Of a stretch of DNA of 64,000 nucleotides, positions 2,783-41,698 are shown one piece after another. The first letter of the stretch is position 1, and each line of letters starts with the position of its first letter. The position numbers and the translations under genes were made by a program. Below the pieces are notes generated by a model. The model searched no databases, was not told the origin of the DNA, and saw only the letters and a program-made list of their open reading frames with translations. Origin of the DNA: Taibaiella chishuiensis (GTDB lineage Bacteria > Bacteroidota > Bacteroidia > Chitinophagales > Chitinophagaceae); contig NZ_PYGD01000004.1 of assembly GCF_003014535.1 (NCBI RefSeq), positions 248,001 through 312,000 on the forward strand, written 5' to 3'.

Positions 2783-3478
2783 ATGAAACTCGTATCCTGT
2801 ATTATGCCCACCTCTGCCGCAAGGCAGCAATTCATACCCCTGGCTATCGATTATTTCCTGCGCCAGGACTACCCGGATGCCGAACTGATCATTATAGACG
2901 ATAGCCCGCAATCGCAGGAGTATCTTATCCCCGCATCGCCCAAGCTGGCCTATGTGCACCTGGAGCCACGATCCTGGTCGGTAGGCATTAAACGCAACTA
3001 TGCCTGTTCGCGGGCCAAAGGCAGTATTATCCTGCACTGGGACGACGACGACTGGTATGCGCCCGATTGGATCAGCAGGCAGGTACAGGTATTGGAACAA
3101 ACCGGCGCCGGCATCTGCGGCCTCGACCGCCTGCATTTTTTTAATCCTTCGTTACAGCAGTCCTGGCAATATATTTATGATTACGATAGCCGTCCCTGGG
3201 TGGCGGGTGCTACCATGGCCTATCTCAGGGAGGTATGGGAGCGTCGTCCCTTTCCCGATATGCAGGTGGGCGAGGATAATGAGTTCGTATGGAATGCAGG
3301 CGTAGCAGTTGTTGCACACGATCATACCGATGGTTTTATATCCCTGTTGCATGGTAGGAATACCAGTCCCAAGCATACCAGTCACCGGCAATGGAAGCCC
3401 ATGCCGGTAACTGTGGTACAACAAATATTGGGGGCCGACCTGGAGCGTTATGCTTTCTGCCACCAGGAACCCCAGTAG
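2783..3478 (+). CDS. GT2-family glycosyltransferase
   Basis: 231 residues with a GT-A fold. The N-terminal strand MKLVSCIMPTSAARQQFIPLAI and IIIDDSP match nucleotide-sugar binding of family 2, and HWDDDDWYAPDW holds the DxD-type metal site. A C-terminal acidic site (GEDNEFVWN) is the likely catalytic region. The protein is short and has no membrane segment, so it is probably cytosolic and acts on a small or peptide acceptor, or joins a larger polysaccharide pathway. The donor cannot be told from sequence. It converges on the next gene and overlaps its 3' end by 31 bp. It is one of four small glycosyltransferases between 2783 and 5572. Confidence 0.85.
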   Translation: MKLVSCIMPTSAARQQFIPLAIDYFLRQDYPDAELIIIDDSPQSQEYLIPASPKLAYVHLEPRSWSVGIKRNYACSRAKGSIILHWDDDDWYAPDWISRQVQVLEQTGAGICGLDRLHFFNPSLQQSWQYIYDYDSRPWVAGATMAYLREVWERRPFPDMQVGEDNEFVWNAGVAVVAHDHTDGFISLLHGRNTSPKHTSHRQWKPMPVTVVQQILGADLERYAFCHQEPQ

Positions 3479-4143
3479 TGATGTATGGCGTAAGCCCTGT
3501 CAGCGCTGCATACCTGGTCCCGGTTCGATGTATCCAGCTTCCCGGTGTCCAGGTCTTTTTCCAGCGGGTAAAGAAACTCGGGGCCCCATATCTTAAGCTG
3601 CTCCTTATCGGGGTATTGTTCGTATACCCGGGTCAGCATAAAAGGACCGCCGCAATCCAGTACATAATTAAAGCCGGGTTCGCCACGGAATTGGATGAAA
3701 TCGTTGCGTTCCAGGTAACTGCAAAGCGCCTGTACAAAACCCGATCCGGGTTGTGCCGCCATAAAGGCATTGCTGATAATGGCGTGTTTCTTGTGGTGCA
3801 GCGCATGCGACTGCGGTTCCAGTCCCGCTACAAACTCTGCCTGGTAGAGCAGCGGACTTACATTTTTAAGGCATTCGAAATCCAGATCAACAAATAGCCC
3901 GCCCATCTTCAGCAGGATAAAGTACCGTACGGCATCTACCCTTTGTATGGCCGTGGGATAGCGGTCGTATACCGGCAGGAAGTGCGGGTGGTTGTCGTAT
4001 ATAAACTGCCGGTTCATCTCGTCGGTCCACAGCACGTATTCCCAGCCGGGATGTTGCGCGCGCCAGCCTGCAGCAAAGGTTTCGAGGTGTTGGGGTATCT
4101 TATGGTCTTTCCAGGTCTGGTGTATTATTTTAGGAATATTCAT
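3448..4143 (-). CDS. GT32-family glycosyltransferase (capsular/OCH1 type)
   Basis: 231 residues. It starts with the diagnostic MNIPKIIHQTWK of the glycosyltransferase sugar-binding (DXD) family, then HPGWEYVLWTDE, RVDAVRYFILLKMGGLFVDLDFE. The DLD within the last segment is the metal/nucleotide-sugar DxD site. The C-terminal HHYWGSWW is also typical of GT32. It is the last gene of a three-gene minus-strand operon, with 18 bp separating it from the preceding gene. Its 3' end overlaps the 3' end of the convergent GT2 gene by 31 bp. Acceptor and sugar are unknown. Confidence 0.85.
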   Translation of the reverse strand: MNIPKIIHQTWKDHKIPQHLETFAAGWRAQHPGWEYVLWTDEMNRQFIYDNHPHFLPVYDRYPTAIQRVDAVRYFILLKMGGLFVDLDFECLKNVSPLLYQAEFVAGLEPQSHALHHKKHAIISNAFMAAQPGSGFVQALCSYLERNDFIQFRGEPGFNYVLDCGGPFMLTRVYEQYPDKEQLKIWGPEFLYPLEKDLDTGKLDTSNRDQVCSADRAYAIHHYWGSWWQKA

Positions 4144-4161
4144 GGTGTTCAGGGTTGGGTT

Positions 4162-4836
4162 TTATTGCCAGCGCCAGCTGCCCTGGTGCAGGTGTGCCGC
4201 ATAATCGCCGAAATGACAGGAAGGCGTGGTACTGCACTTTTTCAGGCATTGATGCTGGTTGTTTTTTAAAAGATGGATGCCGGTGTATAGCCGGCTTTGC
4301 TCGTGGTACAGGTCTGTAAGCATGCCCGGGCCGGTACTCTCCAGGATATCGTGCTCGCTACCGATAGGCTGACTGCTGCCGGCTATAGCGCGGCTTATGG
4401 CCTCGTAGATAAAGGCCTGTCCGGGTGCTGCGCCGATCATGTAATTGGCAATACGCAGGGCATTGCGGTGTCCCAGCTGCCGGCAGCTGGCAGTGCTCAG
4501 TGTTTTTTCTTCGGCCAGCACCACCCGGTGCCCACGCAGGTCATGCAGCGGTTTATACAGGTGCATATCGGTATCCAGGTAGAAGCCGCCATAGCGGTAC
4601 AGGGCAATAAGCCGGAACACATCGGTGCGTTGTATGTTGTGCGGGTAGGCATCGTAGGCAGCAAGCCACTGCGGGTAATAATCCCGTACGGTATTGCGGG
4701 CGTCTGCATCATCGTGCAGCACCAGGTTCCAGCCGGGATGTAACTGCTGCAGCCGTTCGTATAAAGGCGCATAAACACCGGTAACGGCATGTTTATCCTT
4801 CAGGACCAGGTGTATTGTTGCAGGTATCTGTTCCAT
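4162..4836 (-). CDS. GT32-family glycosyltransferase
   Basis: 224 residues from ATG at 4836. The open frame continues upstream to 5010, but that part lies inside the preceding gene and has no family similarity, while MEQIPATIHLVLKDK is the expected GT32 beginning. Start and preceding stop are separated by one base (TGA T ATG), indicating tight coupling. DVFRLIALYRYGGFYLDTDMH carries the DxD motif, and the C-terminus (HLHQGSWRW) parallels HHYWGSWW of the downstream paralogue. Four cysteines near the C-terminus are unusual. Acceptor and donor sugar are unknown. Confidence 0.82.
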   Translation of the reverse strand: MEQIPATIHLVLKDKHAVTGVYAPLYERLQQLHPGWNLVLHDDADARNTVRDYYPQWLAAYDAYPHNIQRTDVFRLIALYRYGGFYLDTDMHLYKPLHDLRGHRVVLAEEKTLSTASCRQLGHRNALRIANYMIGAAPGQAFIYEAISRAIAGSSQPIGSEHDILESTGPGMLTDLYHEQSRLYTGIHLLKNNQHQCLKKCSTTPSCHFGDYAAHLHQGSWRWQ

Positions 4837-4837
4837 A

Positions 4838-5572
4838 TCAGGATAGTTGTTGCAGGAGCGCAGCCTGTGGTGGCGCTGTGGTTTCCCGTATTTGGATAAC
4901 TGCTTCCTGCTGCGCCTGCGGGAGTAACTGGCTGTATCGCATAAAGCCGTTGAAGTGGTTGAAGTCCCAGGTATTGGCGCCATGGAAGGTATAGATGTAT
5001 AGGTGGGCATGGTTGCTTATAGTTTGTAGTTGGCCTGTCTTTAACAACAGGTTGACCAGTGGGCTGTCTTCTCCTTTTTCAAGGTTTTGGTATTGATGTT
5101 GCAGGGCAAAATTGCGGTCGCAGAGTATACTGCCTTCCCAGTGGCGGATGCAGGAGCGGTAGGCCTGTTGATGCACTGCGTCGTAGATCAGCCATTGGTC
5201 CAGCACGCAGGCCAGGCGCTCGCCGGCGCTTCCAGCTAGTTGTTCGTATTGCACCTGCAGGCGTTCCGGATGGTACCAGTCGTCGTCATCCCACTGGCAA
5301 AAGTAAGTGCCTTCGGCAGCGGCTATGCCGAGGTTGCGGAGCTGTCCCAGCCGGTTATCCGGGCCGGGTGCTACGCTCACGATTTTGAGGGCTTTATCGC
5401 CGTTCCGGTTCCAGTGTTTTACCAGGGTATAACTGCGCTCGTCGCCCTCTTCGAGTACGAGCACCAGCTCTCTGGGCGTATAAGTCTGCATGTCGAAGCA
5501 ATGCAGTGCGGTTTGTAAGCGTTCCGGCCGGTTGCGGGTAACGCAGATGCAGGAAATTAAAGGGGCATTCAT
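4838..5572 (-). CDS. GT2-family glycosyltransferase, first gene of minus operon
   Basis: 244 residues. The start MNAPLISCICVTRNRPERLQ is the classic GT2 N-terminus, followed by LGQLRNLGIAAAEGTYFCQWDDDDWYHPERL with a DDDD metal site that closely parallels the GT2 gene at 2783 (HWDDDDWY). GEDSPLVNLLL is the likely catalytic acidic site. It heads the operon 5572 to 3448 (GT2-GT32-GT32). A candidate -7 element TAACTTTG on the minus strand lies at 5792-5785, which would give a leader of about 200 nt. The pairing of two GT2 and two GT32 enzymes suggests successive sugar additions to one acceptor, which is inference. Confidence 0.85.
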   Translation of the reverse strand: MNAPLISCICVTRNRPERLQTALHCFDMQTYTPRELVLVLEEGDERSYTLVKHWNRNGDKALKIVSVAPGPDNRLGQLRNLGIAAAEGTYFCQWDDDDWYHPERLQVQYEQLAGSAGERLACVLDQWLIYDAVHQQAYRSCIRHWEGSILCDRNFALQHQYQNLEKGEDSPLVNLLLKTGQLQTISNHAHLYIYTFHGANTWDFNHFNGFMRYSQLLPQAQQEAVIQIRETTAPPQAALLQQLS

Positions 5573-6090
5573 AGTGTTTCAGGTTTAAGGAAATACGGGC
5601 AATTCAACAGTGATCCTGCCTGTAACGATACAGCAGGAAAACATACAGTTGCTATAAAACAATGAACGGGGAAACATCCATATTCAATGTATCGCAGAAC
5701 TGGTAAATGACTAAGGACTGGCGCCGGGTAAACAGCCGGGATATATCCGGACCAGGGTGCACAGAGTCGTGCAGAATTGAAAGGCAAAGTTACAATTGTT
5801 TTTATAGATCGGGGAGGGGATTTTACCTGGAAAAATGAGGATCGGCCCGCCGGTTTATCCTGCAGCCGGCTGGGTTCGTCCCTGCTATAAAGGCGATAAG
5901 ATTAAAGTTACTTATATGTTTATTGTGAAATTGTATATTTGAAATAGACGTCGGAAAAACATACCTGCTGCACCTTAATTGTTGTGCAGTACCCTTAAAG
6001 AAACACTACCATACTGCGCGTTAGGCCGCTGCAGCGGCACAAAGAGCGGTTAACTCAAATCTTGTTTACATAACCTCAAAACAAACAAGC
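5573..6090. other. intergenic region between glycosyltransferases and RiPP locus
   Basis: 518 bp without a convincing gene. It holds a minus-strand TAACTTTG (5792-5785) that could serve the glycosyltransferase operon, and a plus-strand TATATTTG (5934-5941) ahead of the first RiPP precursor. A 72-codon open frame at 5569-5787 has no recognisable content. I see no tRNA or mobile-element trace. Confidence 0.6.
5934..5941 (+). promoter_or_regulatory. -7 promoter element (TAnnTTTG) for first RiPP precursor
   Basis: TATATTTG matches the Bacteroidota -7 consensus TAnnTTTG. No clean -33 TTG is seen at the usual 19-21 bp spacing. The implied leader is about 145 nt before the ATG at 6091, long enough to hold regulatory structure. 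Confidence 0.45.
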
Positions 6091-6321
6091 ATGAAAAAGA
6101 TCAAAATGGATGCAGGCCGCCTGCAACTGAACAAAACAAAAATTGCCGACCTGAACCAAGCCCAGATGGAACTGGTTAACGGCGGTGCTCCGGCGGGAAA
6201 TACAACCGGTGGTATCGGTGTTAACCCACGCGGGCCCGTTGTACCTTCTGTGCCTTATTATGTTACCTGCCGCAACTGCAATCCGCAGACCAACTCTGTA
6301 AGCTGCTGTGACGGCGTTTAA
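6091..6321 (+). CDS. RiPP precursor peptide 1 (class I lanthipeptide-type leader)
   Basis: 76 residues. Residues 1-32 form a leader with the pattern seen in Bacteroidota lanthipeptide-like precursors: a Lys-rich start (MKKIKM), LQLNKTKIADLN, then a double-glycine cleavage site NGG at 30-32. The predicted core (33-76) is Gly/Pro-rich at first (residues 33-53), then Ser/Thr/Cys-rich with Cys60, Cys63, Cys72 and Cys73 (TCRNC...SCCD). Thr and Ser residues next to these cysteines could be dehydrated and crosslinked by the LanC-like protein encoded at 7993. It shares length, leader and C-terminal module with the second precursor at 6571. It has its own promoter candidate and its own terminator, so it can be expressed in excess of the enzymes. 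Confidence 0.85.
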   Translation: MKKIKMDAGRLQLNKTKIADLNQAQMELVNGGAPAGNTTGGIGVNPRGPVVPSVPYYVTCRNCNPQTNSVSCCDGV

Positions 6322-6340
6322 TACAACCGTTTTTAACAAA

Positions 6341-6380
6341 GGAAAGAGGTTGCCTGCCGGCAGCCTCTTTCCTTCTTTTT
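6341..6380 (+). terminator. intrinsic terminator after RiPP precursor 1
   Basis: 14-bp stem with one G-T pair (6341-6354 with 6359-6372), 4-nt loop and the T-rich tail TTCTTTTT. A strong Rho-independent terminator 19 bp after the stop codon, separating this precursor from the second. Confidence 0.9.
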
Positions 6381-6570
6381 GTACCATACCGGTTTGGAGG
6401 TTGAAAGTGTTTGTGTGGACAATCGGATCGTTTGCCCCGACAATACGCCAGGTCCTGTAAAATCGCTATATGTTTTTTGCGCTGCACAGTACCTTAGCGG
6501 CCCCGGTTGTCCTGGTAACCAATGCCGGCGCCGTTTTTTTTCAAACAATTTTTTAACCACAAACCGTACA

Positions 6571-6801
6571 ATGAAAAAGATCAAAATGAATGCTGCTAAA
6601 CTGCAGCTCAACAAATCCCGTATCGCAGACCTGAACCTGAACGAAATGCAAATGGTGCAGGGTGGTAACGACTCCATCGGTGTTATCGACCCCATCAAAA
6701 CAAAAACCATCCAACCACCAAGGCAGTCTGTTCCTTTTTACATTACCTGCCGTAATTGCAATCCAAACACGAATTCTATCGGCTGCTGCGATGCTGTTTA
6801 A
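6571..6801 (+). CDS. RiPP precursor peptide 2 (paralogue of precursor 1)
   Basis: 76 residues, identical in length to precursor 1. The frame is open further upstream to 6379, but the shared MKKIKM start and 18 identical nucleotides at the start codon place the ATG at 6571. The leader has LQLNKSRIADLN and a QGG cleavage site at residues 30-32. The core begins NDSIGVIDP and has no similarity to the first core until residue 52, after which SVPFYITCRNC and GCCDAV mirror precursor 1. Cysteines are at the same positions 60, 63, 72 and 73. The arrangement, constant leader plus constant C-terminal Cys module plus variable N-terminal core, suggests a duplicated pair with separate activities or a two-component product (inference). 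Confidence 0.87.
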   Translation: MKKIKMNAAKLQLNKSRIADLNLNEMQMVQGGNDSIGVIDPIKTKTIQPPRQSVPFYITCRNCNPNTNSIGCCDAV

Positions 6802-6832
6802 TTATTAGTAACGCATTGGGGTAATTAAACGG

Positions 6833-6866
6833 GAGGCTGCAGGGGATCATTCTGCAGCCTCTTTGT
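6833..6866 (+). terminator. terminator between RiPP precursor 2 and enzyme genes
   Basis: Perfect 10-bp stem GAGGCTGCAG / CTGCAGCCTC (6833-6842 with 6852-6861) and the tail TTTGTT. It lies between precursor 2 and the E1-like gene, so the enzymes depend on read-through or a promoter of their own. Confidence 0.8.
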
Positions 6867-6955
6867 TATTTTGCAGCACCGGAACCTTCCGTCAGTCGGA
6901 AAACATCCTGGTATCAAAAGGATACCGGCCCCGGGTTTTTAAATACAAGACAAAC

Positions 6956-7996
6956 ATGGTCACCTTTAAGCTTAAAGAATTTCTTACACTCAGAACGGCG
7001 GGCGATACTGTTGTTGTACAGCATACCGATGGCCAGGTCCGCTCTTTCGCGATGGATGCCGCGGAGCGGGAAGTATTACAACGCTTACTATCACACCAGG
7101 GCCTGGATGACGCTGCCTTGGCCGCCTGGCAGTCGCCGTTAAAAGATTATTTCCTGGAGCAGGATCTGTTCCGGGAAGAAGAAGGCCAGCCCGCCCACCG
7201 CGAACGCCATGATCTTTATCTCGACTATATCGCCTACAAATATGCAACGCCCATCGATAAACAGCAGCTGGAAGCTAAGCGGGTATTGGTGCTGGGCGCG
7301 GGCGGCGGCGGTGCTGGTGTGCTATACCAACTGGCCCAGCTGGGTATAAAAGAACTGGCCGTGGCCGACTTCGATACCGTATCCGAAACCGATATCCGGC
7401 GTAGTATGGTCTATCGTAAAAGACATATCGGTCAGAAAAAGACGACGGTACTGCAACAGGAACTCGGGGAAAATTTTGGTACCGCACTCACCATATTCGA
7501 CGTCAAGATCGATGCCGGAAATATAAACCGTATCCTGTCTTCGGGCAGGTACGACCTGGTGGTGAACGGCATCGATCCGGATCCGGAACATAAGATGATC
7601 CTGAACCGGCTTTGTCACCAGTACCGCGTACCGGTACTGTTTATCGCTTATTCTTACGAGATGTTGCTGGTAGGCCCTCTCGTAGTGCCAGGCAGTACTT
7701 CCTGTTACGAATCCTACAATAAACATGTGCGGGAAACTGTGGAGGGGCGTTTCGATTTTTACAGCATCCGGCGTATGCCTTCCGATTACCTGCATCATCC
7801 TTCCGCTAATTTCAGCATCAATATGCTTTGTGCCTTTGCCGTAAGGGACATTCTCTTTTTTCTTGCCGGCAAATACGAGATCGTAGCCACATGGGGTACT
7901 TTACTGTTCCTGGATGGCGTGGGTATGAGCATCGATACTTTTGAACTGAACTGTACAGACGATTGCCCGGTATGTAAGCCGGGCCCAACCTTATGA
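6956..7996 (+). CDS. ThiF/E1-like adenylating enzyme with N-terminal leader-binding-like domain
   Basis: 346 residues from ATG 6956, chosen because the upstream extension runs back into the terminator at 6833. Residues 1-75 look like a small winged-helix RiPP recognition element (alternating strands, then helices AEREVLQRLL). Residues 108-330 form a ThiF-type Rossmann domain: VLVLGAGGGGAG (111-121) for ATP, acidic DFD at 138-140, IRRSMVYRKRHIGQKK for the conserved Arg/Lys contacts, and GIDPDPEHKMILNRLC for the conserved Asp. The C-terminus has Cys333 and CPVC (337-340). E1 zinc sites usually use two CxxC pairs, so the site is minimal here. The family adenylates carboxylates. In RiPP pathways it acts as a recognition partner (Ocin-ThiF type) or activates the peptide C-terminus (MccB type). 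Its stop overlaps the LanC-like start by 4 bp. Confidence 0.8.
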   Translation: MVTFKLKEFLTLRTAGDTVVVQHTDGQVRSFAMDAAEREVLQRLLSHQGLDDAALAAWQSPLKDYFLEQDLFREEEGQPAHRERHDLYLDYIAYKYATPIDKQQLEAKRVLVLGAGGGGAGVLYQLAQLGIKELAVADFDTVSETDIRRSMVYRKRHIGQKKTTVLQQELGENFGTALTIFDVKIDAGNINRILSSGRYDLVVNGIDPDPEHKMILNRLCHQYRVPVLFIAYSYEMLLVGPLVVPGSTSCYESYNKHVRETVEGRFDFYSIRRMPSDYLHHPSANFSINMLCAFAVRDILFFLAGKYEIVATWGTLLFLDGVGMSIDTFELNCTDDCPVCKPGPTL

Positions 7997-9189
7997 TAGC
8001 AGCTATACGGAATAAACACGACGAGATCGTAAAGGCGGTAACAGACTTCCTCGTACAGCAGGAAGCGCCGGTATATTGGGGATTAGCCAATGGGCGTGCC
8101 GGCGCTATGCTGCACCTGTTGTATGCGCATAAGCACGGTCTCCTTACCGACTTCGAACCCTTTGAAGCTGCGGTCCAGGAGCTGAGCGGCATCGGCCTGC
8201 AGGACGTAGATTTTAGTTATGGTATGGGAAAGGCAGGCCTGAACTGGTTTTACCAGCTCATGTTCCGGCACGGATTGCTCGACCAGGAGGATATCGATCT
8301 GCTGTGTTTTGATGATGATTACCTGGAAAGCTTTGCCCTTGCTGCATTGGAAGCCGGTAACTACGATTACCTGTACGGCGGGCTAGGCGCAGCGGCCTAC
8401 CTGTTGTACCGGCACGGTGCGCAAAAGAAAGATTACATGGCCCGTGTACTGGCCCTGATTGCGGAACAGGTGAGGGCTAACAATGGCGCCCTGCCTGCTT
8501 TTCAGCTTATGGAGCAACGGCCCGTTCCTGAAATGGTTAACCTCGGACTTGCCCACGGCCTGCCGGCGGTGATCCGCTTTTGCCTGCTTTGCTACACACA
8601 GGATGTTTGCCGCGAAGAGAGCCGGTCGCTGGCCTTGCAACTTATCCGCTATATACGGGCACAGGTGCGGGAGGGCAAAGACACCTGTTACTTTCCCTCT
8701 GTGGTGGAAAAGGGTAAATCGATAGAACAGGATACCAGCAGGCTGGGCTGGTGTTACGGCGATCTGGGTATCGCTTTTGTCCTGTATGAAGCGGGCAGGG
8801 TATTGGCGGATGAGGGGTTAACTGCTTTTGCGCTGGAGGTATTGGAGCATACGACACAACGCAGGACCAATGCACAAACCCTGGTGCACGATGCGGGCTT
8901 TTGTCATGGTAGTGCCGGTATCGCTCATTTTTACAACCGCCTGTGGTTATTATCGCAACGCCCTGTGTTTCGTGAGGCGGCCGACTACTGGATGGCCGAA
9001 ACCCTGCGCCTGGCGCAGCATTCAGATGGTGTGGCGGGTTATAAAAAATGGGATGCAGCAGGCAGCAGCTGGATGGCCGATTACAGCCTCATCGAAGGTG
9101 TGGCAGGTATCGGCCTGGTGCTGATCAGCTACCTTACCGGCGATTGTTCCTGGGATTACAGTGTTATGTTGTCCGATGGTTTCAGCTAG
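7993..9189 (+). CDS. LanC-like cyclase
   Basis: 398 residues, close to NisC size. The start overlaps the preceding stop (ATGA), so it is coupled to the E1-like gene. The alpha-toroid repeats carry the G-rich signatures of LanC, and every catalytic position is present: GLAHG with His188 (general acid/base), GWCYGD with Cys254, and FCHG with Cys304 and His305 as the other zinc ligands. LanC proteins activate a cysteine thiolate on zinc for addition to dehydroalanine or dehydrobutyrine, giving lanthionine rings. The precursors at 6091 and 6571 offer four cysteines each. No LanB dehydratase is adjacent, so the electrophile must come from an enzyme encoded elsewhere or from a different activation by the E1-like partner. 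Confidence 0.85.
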   Translation: MIAAIRNKHDEIVKAVTDFLVQQEAPVYWGLANGRAGAMLHLLYAHKHGLLTDFEPFEAAVQELSGIGLQDVDFSYGMGKAGLNWFYQLMFRHGLLDQEDIDLLCFDDDYLESFALAALEAGNYDYLYGGLGAAAYLLYRHGAQKKDYMARVLALIAEQVRANNGALPAFQLMEQRPVPEMVNLGLAHGLPAVIRFCLLCYTQDVCREESRSLALQLIRYIRAQVREGKDTCYFPSVVEKGKSIEQDTSRLGWCYGDLGIAFVLYEAGRVLADEGLTAFALEVLEHTTQRRTNAQTLVHDAGFCHGSAGIAHFYNRLWLLSQRPVFREAADYWMAETLRLAQHSDGVAGYKKWDAAGSSWMADYSLIEGVAGIGLVLISYLTGDCSWDYSVMLSDGFS

Positions 9190-40729: not shown

Positions 40730-41698
40730 ATGAACACCCATAAAAAGCGCCCGAAGGCGGTCGATAACTCGGGCTTCAGCGATAACAGCAGTGCGGAAGG
40801 CTGGCGCCTGATCAACAAAGATGGTAGTACCAACCTGAAAAAGACAGGCATTCCTTTTTACCGCAGGATCAGTATCTACCATACTTTACTGAAGATGAAA
40901 CGGGGCAAGTTCCTCGTTGCGGTATTCCTGTTTTATACCGTTATGAATCTCTTCTTCGCCTGCCTGTATATGCTGATCGGTATCGACCGTTTATCGGGCA
41001 GTACCCGGGGCAGTACTTTCTTCGACGATTTTTCGCAGGCCTTTTTCTTTAGCTCGCAAACCCTTACCACGGTGGGTTATGGGCACATTGCGCCGGTGGG
41101 CCTTATTGCCAATTCCCTGGCTTCTATCGAATCGTTCCTGGGTATTATGACCTTTGCTCTGGTTACCGGTATGTTCTATGCGCGCTTTTCCCGGCCCAAG
41201 GCCTATATCCGTTTCAGCGATAATGTGCTGGTGGCGCCGTTCAAGGAGGGGCGTGCATTGATGTTCCGTATGGCGACCGATAAGAACAACCATCTTACCG
41301 ATGTGGAAGCCCAGGTTACCGTAGCGGTACATATCCTGGAGGAAGGTAAACGGTCTACTAAATTTTACCAGCTGCCCCTGGAGATCAACCGGATCAATTC
41401 GCTGGCCATCAGCTGGACCTGTGTGCACCACCTTAACGAAGATAGCCCGCTGAGCGGCTTCGGCGCCCAGGACTTTAAGAACGGTGCTGTAGAATTGATG
41501 GTAACGGTAAAAGCCTTCGACGATCATTTTTCCAATACGGTTCAGCAACGTACCTCTTACGCTGCCGAAGAACTGGTGTACGGCGCCAGGTTTTCTATGA
41601 TGTACGAAAGAGCGGGCTCGGGTCGCTATACCCAGGTTATGCTCGATAAGCTTAATGCTTACGAAGTCCATACCTTCAGTGCTGATCCGTCGGCTTAG
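40730..41698 (+). CDS. KirBac-type inward-rectifier potassium channel
   Basis: 322 residues. An amphipathic slide helix ([14 protein letters not shown]) leads into outer helix ([22 protein letters not shown]), a pore with the selectivity filter [10 protein letters not shown] (TVGYG, residues 114-118) and the inner helix ([20 protein letters not shown]). The cytoplasmic beta-rich domain ([24 protein letters not shown]..., [25 protein letters not shown]) is the Kir C-terminal domain. It should conduct K+ under control by lipids or pH. Its 3' end overlaps the convergent rnhB by 4 bp. Confidence 0.93.

What the first reader, a model, noticed from the sequence alone, without database searches (positions are those of the whole stretch)
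6091..9189. Compact RiPP cluster: two lanthipeptide-type precursors with an E1-like enzyme and LanC but no dehydratase
Seen: two 76-residue peptides with LxLNKxxIADLN leader and GG site, then an E1/ThiF-like gene (6956) and a LanC-like gene (7993) overlapping by 4 bp. Known: class I lanthipeptide pathways need LanB to make dehydro-amino acids before LanC adds cysteine. No LanB, LanM, YcaO, peptidase-exporter or radical SAM gene lies within the window. Inference: either dehydration is done in trans, or the E1-like protein replaces LanB by activating a carboxylate that LanC-bound cysteine thiolate attacks, giving a different crosslink (for example a thioester). The order precursor-E1-LanC does not match a class I pathway I know.
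Basis: partly seen in the sequence, partly recalled or inferred. Interest (0 to 1): 0.82.

Follow-up and report, generated by a model that had tools for sequence, protein, structure and literature searches.

The report
Lanthipeptide satellite operon with E1-like enzyme
A small bacterial peptide operon seems to borrow its missing dehydration enzyme from elsewhere in the genome and carries a rare extra enzyme that probably ties off a shared four-residue tail (Cys-Asp-x-Ala/Val) of the peptides, which can be tested in a test tube.

Summary
The genes are real. Two 76-residue precursors with a class I lanthipeptide leader precede an E1/ThiF-like gene and a LanC with its zinc and active-site residues. 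No LanB was found in the window.

E1 probably does not replace LanB. The same genome has two full-length LanBs, a C39 exporter and three LanCs on another contig, and two more LanB-less LanC loci. Six of the nine LanCs grouped with this one have LanB next door. In the family, 27 of 28 genomes with this LanC type hold a LanB; in a 79-genome sample, 2 of 69 genomes without it do. Dehydration in trans is the best reading.

The E1 resembles MccB and PaaA. One homologue turned up in five overlapping sampled searches. It lies in another class of the phylum, beside a GG-type peptide and a C39 exporter; its 28-kb contig shows no LanC or LanB (the rest of that genome was not searched). That peptide ends CDNA, the window's CDGV and CDAV. 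Of 1833 small ORFs examined, only these three end C-D-x-x.

I infer that E1 activates a carboxylate in this tail, most likely closing a Cys thiolactone (precedent GrcB), or else an aspartimide. The chemistry is untested. New variant of a known kind.

The parts
6091..6321 (+). Precursor A1, 76 aa; L1a leader, GG at 31-32; core with C60, C63, C72, C73 and tail C-D-G-V
6339..6374 (+). Hairpin (16 pairs) plus T-run after A1; attenuator-like terminator
6571..6801 (+). Precursor A2, 76 aa; L1a leader, GG at 31-32; same four Cys and tail C-D-A-V
6831..6863 (+). Hairpin (14 pairs) plus T-rich stretch after A2, before the enzyme genes
6956..7996 (+). E1/ThiF-like adenylyltransferase, 346 aa; RRE-like N-terminal domain (about 1-70) and MccB/PaaA-like adenylation domain
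7993..9189 (+). LanC cyclase, 398 aa; starts 4 bp inside E1 (ATGA); D125, H188, C254, C304 and H305 in place
6307..6318 (+). Codons of the C-terminal tail C-D-G-V of A1, shared with the E1-linked precursor of G1003 (C-D-N-A)
6787..6798 (+). Codons of the C-terminal tail C-D-A-V of A2

Best explanation
A satellite class I lanthipeptide operon with an added E1-type tailoring step. The two precursors are transcribed ahead of the enzymes, with hairpins after each precursor that would keep enzyme transcripts lower (inferred). Ser/Thr residues are dehydrated in trans by a LanB encoded at the hub on contig C1, most likely LanB2. The local LanC adds Cys thiols to form (methyl)lanthionines; conserved S53, T59, T67, S69 face C60, C63, C72, C73. 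The E1 binds the leader through its RRE-like domain, adenylates a carboxylate in the C-terminal C-D-x-(A/V) tail, and a nucleophile in the peptide displaces AMP. Most likely Cys73 attacks the C-terminal carboxylate (thiolactone, GrcB-like); second choice, an aspartimide at Asp74. The hub C39 exporter would cut at GG and export. Shown by sequence: genes, leader class, enzyme families, residues, hub genes, shared tail. Inferred: every reaction. My odds: trans dehydration 0.75; E1 acts on the tail 0.65; thiolactone in particular 0.4.
For: Own genome: 6 LanC. Two full-length LanBs (both PF04738 and PF14028), a C39 exporter and HlyD lie on contig C1. L1a-leader precursors score above cut-off at the hub and at both other LanB-less LanC loci, C2 and C11 (6 of 7 ORFs). 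LanC tree: window LanC falls in a 10-row group (99/95) with nine others, six of which have a LanB alongside (L079, L082-L085, L090); own LanB2 falls with exactly those six LanBs plus one more (100/99). Family-wide: LanB in 27 of 28 genomes with this LanC type. In a sample of 79 genomes, LanB in 10 of 10 LanC-positive and 2 of 69 LanC-negative. Of 44 LanC places, 29 have LanB within 10 kb, 14 have one elsewhere in the genome, 1 has none. E1: best solved relative by sequence is MccB (63 bits); with a two-sequence profile MccB (88 bits) and then PaaA (57 bits) lead; the first 24 Foldseek matches are MccB chains, the next PaaA. R149, K162, D207 align with MccB and are invariant across 21 MoeB/ThiF-like proteins. 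Homologue in G1003: GG-type peptide, E1, hydrolase, C39 exporter, HlyD. Tail: 3 of 1833 small ORFs end C-D-x-x, all three E1-linked; column frequencies predict about 0.1% per ORF.
Against: Only two independent E1 loci are known, and A1/A2 are paralogues, so the tail rests on two cases and was noticed after the fact. The G1003 peptide matches no Pfam or NCBIfam precursor model; I call it a precursor from its place, its GG and the C39 exporter. Its contig starts 723 bases before it, and LanC or LanB elsewhere in that genome was not searched for, so the same trans argument could apply there. G1003 E1 has lysine where the window E1 has R149. The RRE-like domain has no convincing Pfam match; its fold is moderately confident in the window E1 and poorly predicted in the homologue. 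The MccB and PaaA matches superpose loosely (TM about 0.5, rmsd about 14-15). In the single-sequence search eukaryotic SUMO E1s rank above PaaA. LanB2 has two other LanCs beside it, so it is not left over for the window LanC alone; the LanB tree carries a long-branch warning for two of the six partners. Four conserved Ser/Thr match four Cys, which would leave no free Cys if all form lanthionines; this speaks for aspartimide over thiolactone. Trans action is inferred from co-occurrence, not shown.
Confidence: 0.55

Rival explanations
1. Same operon and trans dehydration, but the E1 forms an aspartimide: it adenylates the Asp74 side chain and the following backbone NH attacks, as MccB forms a succinimide on its way to microcin C.
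For: The tail residue after Asp is Gly, Ala or Asn, small residues that favour aspartimide (recalled). Asp74 is the only side-chain carboxylate in the A1 core. The nearest solved enzyme, MccB, goes through a succinimide (PMC12250964 section 7). It leaves all four Cys for lanthionines.
Against: It does not explain why Cys precedes Asp in G1003, whose core has a single Cys and no LanC on its contig. No activation of an Asp side chain by this family was described in the passages and sections that I read.
Confidence: 0.25
2. The E1 is a leader-binding scaffold without catalysis that brings the precursors to the distant LanB, as ThiF-like proteins do for YcaO enzymes.
For: ThiF-like docking proteins are known in YcaO and thiopeptide pathways (PMC7470986 and PMC12150305 passages). 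A satellite would gain from an adaptor.
Against: Nucleotide-site residues are conserved. The other two LanB-less LanC loci of this genome manage without an E1: the genome's only other match to E1 is a MoeB-like stretch on C16. The G1003 contig shows no LanB or LanC to dock to (rest of that genome not searched).
Confidence: 0.12
3. The E1 replaces LanB: it activates a carboxylate and LanC-bound cysteine thiolate attacks it, giving thioester rings without dehydration.
For: Order precursor-E1-LanC and overlap of the two genes; thiolactone formation by a ThiF-like enzyme is known (GrcB, via PMC12250964).
Against: LanBs are present in the genome and track this LanC type. LanC keeps the residues that align with NisC's active site. 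The E1 homologue has no LanC on its contig. The A1 core has two carboxylates in all, Asp74 and the C-terminus, so E1 cannot supply partners for four Cys.
Confidence: 0.06
4. A decaying cluster that lost its LanB and makes nothing.
For: No LanB, exporter or protease was found in the operon; the other three genomes of the genus that were searched have no full-length E1 match.
Against: All four reading frames are intact; the precursors differ most at third codon positions; the four Cys and tail are kept in both paralogues; LanC residues are intact; 14 of 44 LanC places in the family are likewise more than 10 kb from a LanB of the same genome.
Confidence: 0.05

Closest known systems
Class I lanthipeptides of Bacteroidota with L1a leader (NCBIfam NF038153)
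   Same: Leader class over cut-off, GG site, LanC with zinc ligands; six of nine LanCs of its tree group pair with a full-length LanB
   Different: LanB is not in the operon but elsewhere in the genome; an E1-like gene sits between precursors and LanC
MccB (microcin C) and PaaA (pantocin A), RRE-fused ThiF-like adenylyltransferases
   Same: Best structure matches and, with the two-sequence profile, best sequence matches; same two-part architecture
   Different: 16-20% identity in the Foldseek alignments; no C-terminal Asn (MccB), and no lanthipeptide leader or LanC partner in those systems (recalled)
GrcB thiolactone synthase of streptococcal GRC peptides
   Same: RRE plus ThiF-like enzyme acting near a C-terminal Cys and carboxylate (PMC12250964, PMC12150305, passages)
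   Different: GRC clusters have a radical SAM partner and a Glu35/Cys39 pair; here the order is Cys-Asp-x-x and the partner is LanC. GrcB's sequence was not compared here
ThiF-like gene beside a lanthipeptide dehydratase in Abiotrophia defectiva, mentioned in PMC12250964 section 4.2
   Same: ThiF-like enzyme in a lanthipeptide setting, uncharacterised
   Different: Other phylum (recalled), dehydratase in the same cluster; sequence not compared

Membership tests
Class I lanthipeptide pathway | Precursor with a recognised class I leader | tested here: met
   NF038153, 33.3 and 29.2 bits, cut-off 22
Class I lanthipeptide pathway | Stand-alone LanC with zinc ligands and active-site residues | tested here: met
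   C254, C304, H305, H188, D125 align with NisC; residue roles recalled
Class I lanthipeptide pathway | LanB dehydratase in the cluster | tested here: not met
   None found in the window
Class I lanthipeptide pathway | LanB available in the cell | tested here: met
   Two full-length LanBs on C1 and one shorter on C7
Class I lanthipeptide pathway | (Methyl)lanthionine in the product | not testable with these tools
   Needs mass spectrometry or NMR
MccB/PaaA-type RiPP adenylyltransferase | N-terminal RRE-like domain fused to ThiF domain | tested here: inconclusive
   Predicted 4 strands and 3 helices before the ThiF domain, MccB best match, but no convincing HMM match for the domain alone and low confidence in the homologue
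MccB/PaaA-type RiPP adenylyltransferase | Nucleotide-site residues (R149, K162, D207) | tested here: met
   Alignment with MccB and 21 MoeB/ThiF-like proteins; R149 is Lys in the G1003 homologue; roles recalled
Microcin C pathway | Short precursor ending in Asn | tested here: not met
   76-aa precursors ending in Val
GRC-type thiolactone pathway | Radical SAM partner and Glu/Cys pair at the C-terminus | tested here: not met
   No radical SAM among 33 window proteins scanned; tail is C-D-x-V
Azole/TOMM pathway | YcaO with ThiF-like C protein | tested here: not met
   No YcaO among 33 window proteins scanned (not searched genome-wide); TIGR03882 and TIGR03603 below cut-off

The most novel reading that the evidence does not exclude
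An uncharacterised, rare family of RRE-ThiF enzymes reads a C-terminal Cys-Asp-x-(Ala/Val) tag and closes it by ATP-driven thiolactone (or aspartimide) formation, as a portable module: with an exporter and no nearby LanC in one lineage, and plugged onto a lanthipeptide made with a genome-borrowed LanB in this one. The product would be a lanthipeptide with an E1-made C-terminal ring, a hybrid that my literature searches did not show.
Probability: 0.4. Interest if true: 0.75.

Novelty: new variant of a known kind. Interest (0 to 1): 0.6.

Why it matters
If right, it adds a ThiF-like reaction with a predictable four-residue target to lanthipeptide chemistry. It would also show that class I lanthipeptide pathways in this family can be spread over the genome, with one hub of LanB and exporter serving several precursor-LanC satellites. 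Mining rules that demand a dehydratase gene near LanC discard such loci: Walker et al. (PMC7268733, passage of the methods) discarded LanC clusters without class-defining partners within seven genes as unclassified. The tail gives a clear substrate hypothesis that one in vitro assay can decide.

Tried and rejected
E1 replacing LanB was set aside for the reasons given above. YcaO-type docking was set aside because no YcaO was found among the window proteins scanned.

Searches that led nowhere: genome contigs with E1 and with the precursor alignment gave no confirmed relatives; both used few exact or near-exact peptide patterns, so they do not show absence. Viral contigs with the E1 alignment gave none. 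Plasmids gave 14 Helicobacter pylori plasmid records annotated as ThiF family adenylyltransferase, about 22% identity, for the window E1, and none for the G1003 E1. E1 searches in 394 family, 395 class and 395 phylum genomes, 197 of the G1003 class and 109 of its relatives (draws overlap) gave one homologue. The other matches listed cover only about residues 79-254 and look like MoeB/ThiF. Those E1 searches used cut-offs of 1e-10 to 1e-18, so a very divergent member could be missed.

Glycosyltransferase genes upstream (2783-5572) were considered as cluster members and set aside: the nearest three are on the opposite strand; their conservation with the operon was not tested. A Bacteroidota-type promoter was looked for; one -7-like TAnnTTTG lies at 5934 without a convincing -33 element by eye (consensus recalled), so no claim is made.

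Papers: passages and named sections only. PMC12250964: outline with abstract, passages, sections 7, 16, 20. PMC12150305: passages and part 1 of section 4. PMC7268733: passages and section 8. Passages only of PMC10352776, PMC9993889, PMC12710340 and PMC7470986. The GrcB primary paper was not read. The statement that no E1-LanC lanthipeptide was found in print rests on searches of a library that lacks most subscription journals.

Full report
WHAT IS THERE. Two precursor ORFs (6091-6321, 6571-6801), an E1/ThiF-like gene (6956-7996) and a LanC gene (7993-9189) lie head to tail. Both precursors pass the cut-off of NCBIfam's class I lanthipeptide leader L1a, share 53% identity and differ most at third codon positions. 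Strong hairpins follow each precursor. E1 and LanC overlap by ATGA. No LanB was found in the window.

THE GENOME AROUND IT. The window lies at C4:248001-312000 of a 5.8 Mb, 24-contig genome. That genome has six LanCs. Contig C1 carries a hub: two LanBs with both dehydratase domains, three LanCs, a C39 peptidase exporter and a HlyD. A shorter LanB lies on C7. Two more LanC loci, on C2 and C11, have precursors but no LanB on their contigs. Seven precursor ORFs from the hub, C2 and C11 were scanned against NCBIfam; six pass the L1a cut-off and one, at C2, does not (14.7 bits).

RELATIVES OF THE LanC. In 394 genomes of the family, 28 have a relative of this LanC at E <= 1e-15 (at most four candidates scored per genome). 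I fetched 20 of the 44 places listed. In the LanC tree the window protein joins nine others at 99/95. Six of the nine have a LanB alongside (L079, L082, L083, L084, L085, L090) and three do not (L080, L081, L086). LanB2 of this genome groups with exactly those six LanBs plus L098 (100/99); the program warns of long branches for L082 and L090. Two other LanCs flank LanB2, so it is a fitting partner but not a proven one. LanB occurs in 27 of the 28 LanC-positive genomes: the own genome, seven (the eighth genome there, G174, has neither), and 19 of 20. The exception is G292, whose LanC match begins at base 4 of its contig in a 170-contig assembly. In a sample of 79 family genomes, 12 have LanB: 10 of 10 LanC-positive and 2 of 69 LanC-negative ones by the list (recount). 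Of the 44 LanC places, 29 have LanB within 10 kb, 14 have one elsewhere in the genome, and 1 has none. LanB-less LanC loci are therefore not rare, and nearly always sit in a genome that has LanB. The LanC keeps the residues that align with the zinc ligands and active site of NisC, unlike the LanCs of three Bacteroidales radical-SAM clusters that PMC10352776 (passages) reports to lack the motifs.

WHAT THE E1 IS. By sequence the closest solved protein is MccB (63 bits), followed by eukaryotic SUMO E1s (about 48 bits); PaaA comes lower (26 bits). A profile of the window E1 and its homologue puts MccB (88 bits) and PaaA (57 bits) first. The AlphaFold2 model (mean pLDDT 71) has four strands and three helices before the ThiF domain, as in an RRE. 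Foldseek's first 24 hits are MccB chains and the 25th is PaaA, with alignments of about 350-370 columns but TM near 0.5 and large rmsd, so the domain packing is not reliable. R149, K162 and D207 align with MccB and are invariant in 21 MoeB/ThiF-like proteins, so adenylation is likely; the roles of these residues are recalled. The first 90 residues alone have no convincing Pfam match (best E 0.054, below cut-off).

A SECOND E1 LOCUS. Searches of 394 family and 395 class genomes found no full-length homologue. A search of 395 phylum genomes found one, in G1003 of another class (E = 8.8e-49; 30% identity over 344 columns). Searches in 197 genomes of its class and 109 relatives found no more; the draws overlap. 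In G1003 the order is: a 69-residue GG-type peptide (724-933 of L112, AGGAG upstream), a hairpin, the E1, an alpha/beta hydrolase, a C39 exporter, and further on a HlyD. The peptide itself matches no Pfam or NCBIfam precursor model; its role is inferred from place, GG and exporter. The contig (28,004 bases) begins 723 bases before it. The rest of the G1003 genome was not searched, so a LanC or LanB acting in trans there is not excluded.

THE SHARED TAIL. The three E1-linked peptides end CDGV, CDAV and CDNA. I took every ORF of 45-140 aa (both strands, real genes or not) in 26 fetched loci and the window: 3 of 1833 end C-D-x-x, and they are these three. Column frequencies predict about 1.9 in 1833, or 0.1% per ORF, so three in all is not an excess; the point is that the one ORF next to the second E1 is among them. 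A1 and A2 are paralogues, so the support is one independent coincidence of about 1 in 1000, noticed after the fact but at the end where MccB, GrcB and IndF act (PMC12250964, PMC12150305, passages and sections). In A1 the only carboxylates of the core are Asp74 and the C-terminus. In G1003 the tail Cys is the only Cys.

MECHANISM. Best reading: LanB2 (or LanB1) dehydrates in trans, the local LanC forms thioether rings, and the E1 adenylates a tail carboxylate. Attack by the tail Cys on the C-terminal carboxylate would give a four-residue thiolactone; attack by the next backbone NH on activated Asp74 would give an aspartimide. For the thiolactone: the single Cys of G1003 and the GrcB precedent. 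For the aspartimide: small residues after Asp, MccB's succinimide step, and the match of four conserved Ser/Thr to four Cys in the window precursors. No step has been tested.

KNOWN OR NEW. It works like a class I lanthipeptide pathway with the dehydratase supplied from elsewhere, and like the RRE-ThiF enzymes at the tail. Membership in class I fails on one defining feature, LanB in the cluster, and is untested on the product. A ThiF-like gene beside a lanthipeptide dehydratase in Abiotrophia defectiva is mentioned in print without data (PMC12250964 section 4.2). My searches did not show an E1-LanC pathway or the C-D-x-x tail. I rate it a new variant of a known kind.

Noticed in passing
L014:1515-3915 (contig C1, beside LanB1): Graspetide-like cluster: two MvdD-type ATP-grasp proteins (PF21068) and a small ORF with repeated K-Y-P-S-D motifs, next to a LanB.
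   Followed up: no
L013:12663-13652, L084:2542-5173 (two genes), L081:7045-8250, L098:6607-7668: Erythromycin-esterase/ChaN-like proteins seem to recur inside lanthipeptide loci (PF05139 for L013; ChaN below cut-off for L098 and no Pfam match for L081; the L084 pair by eye only). Role unknown.
   Followed up: partly
L016:9102-13911 (contig C2): LanB-less LanC locus with regulator genes (sensor kinase and response regulator by eye) and four precursor ORFs, three sharing an S-(F/Y)-G-x-C-S-G-F-L-C-C core.
   Followed up: no
window 2783-5572: Four glycosyltransferase genes in a row (GT2 and DXD sugar-binding types) directly upstream, three on the opposite strand.
   Followed up: partly
L081 (G101, same genus): Precursor-X-LanC locus without LanB nearby; its core (N-A-C-S-Q-R-N-S-C-A-R) resembles the hub precursor of the window's genome (L013:9133-9417, V-A-C-S-E-R-N-S-C-A-R), as if precursor types move between hub and satellites.
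   Followed up: no
window 40730-41698: Inward-rectifier-type potassium channel (IRK) homologue in a bacterium.
   Followed up: no
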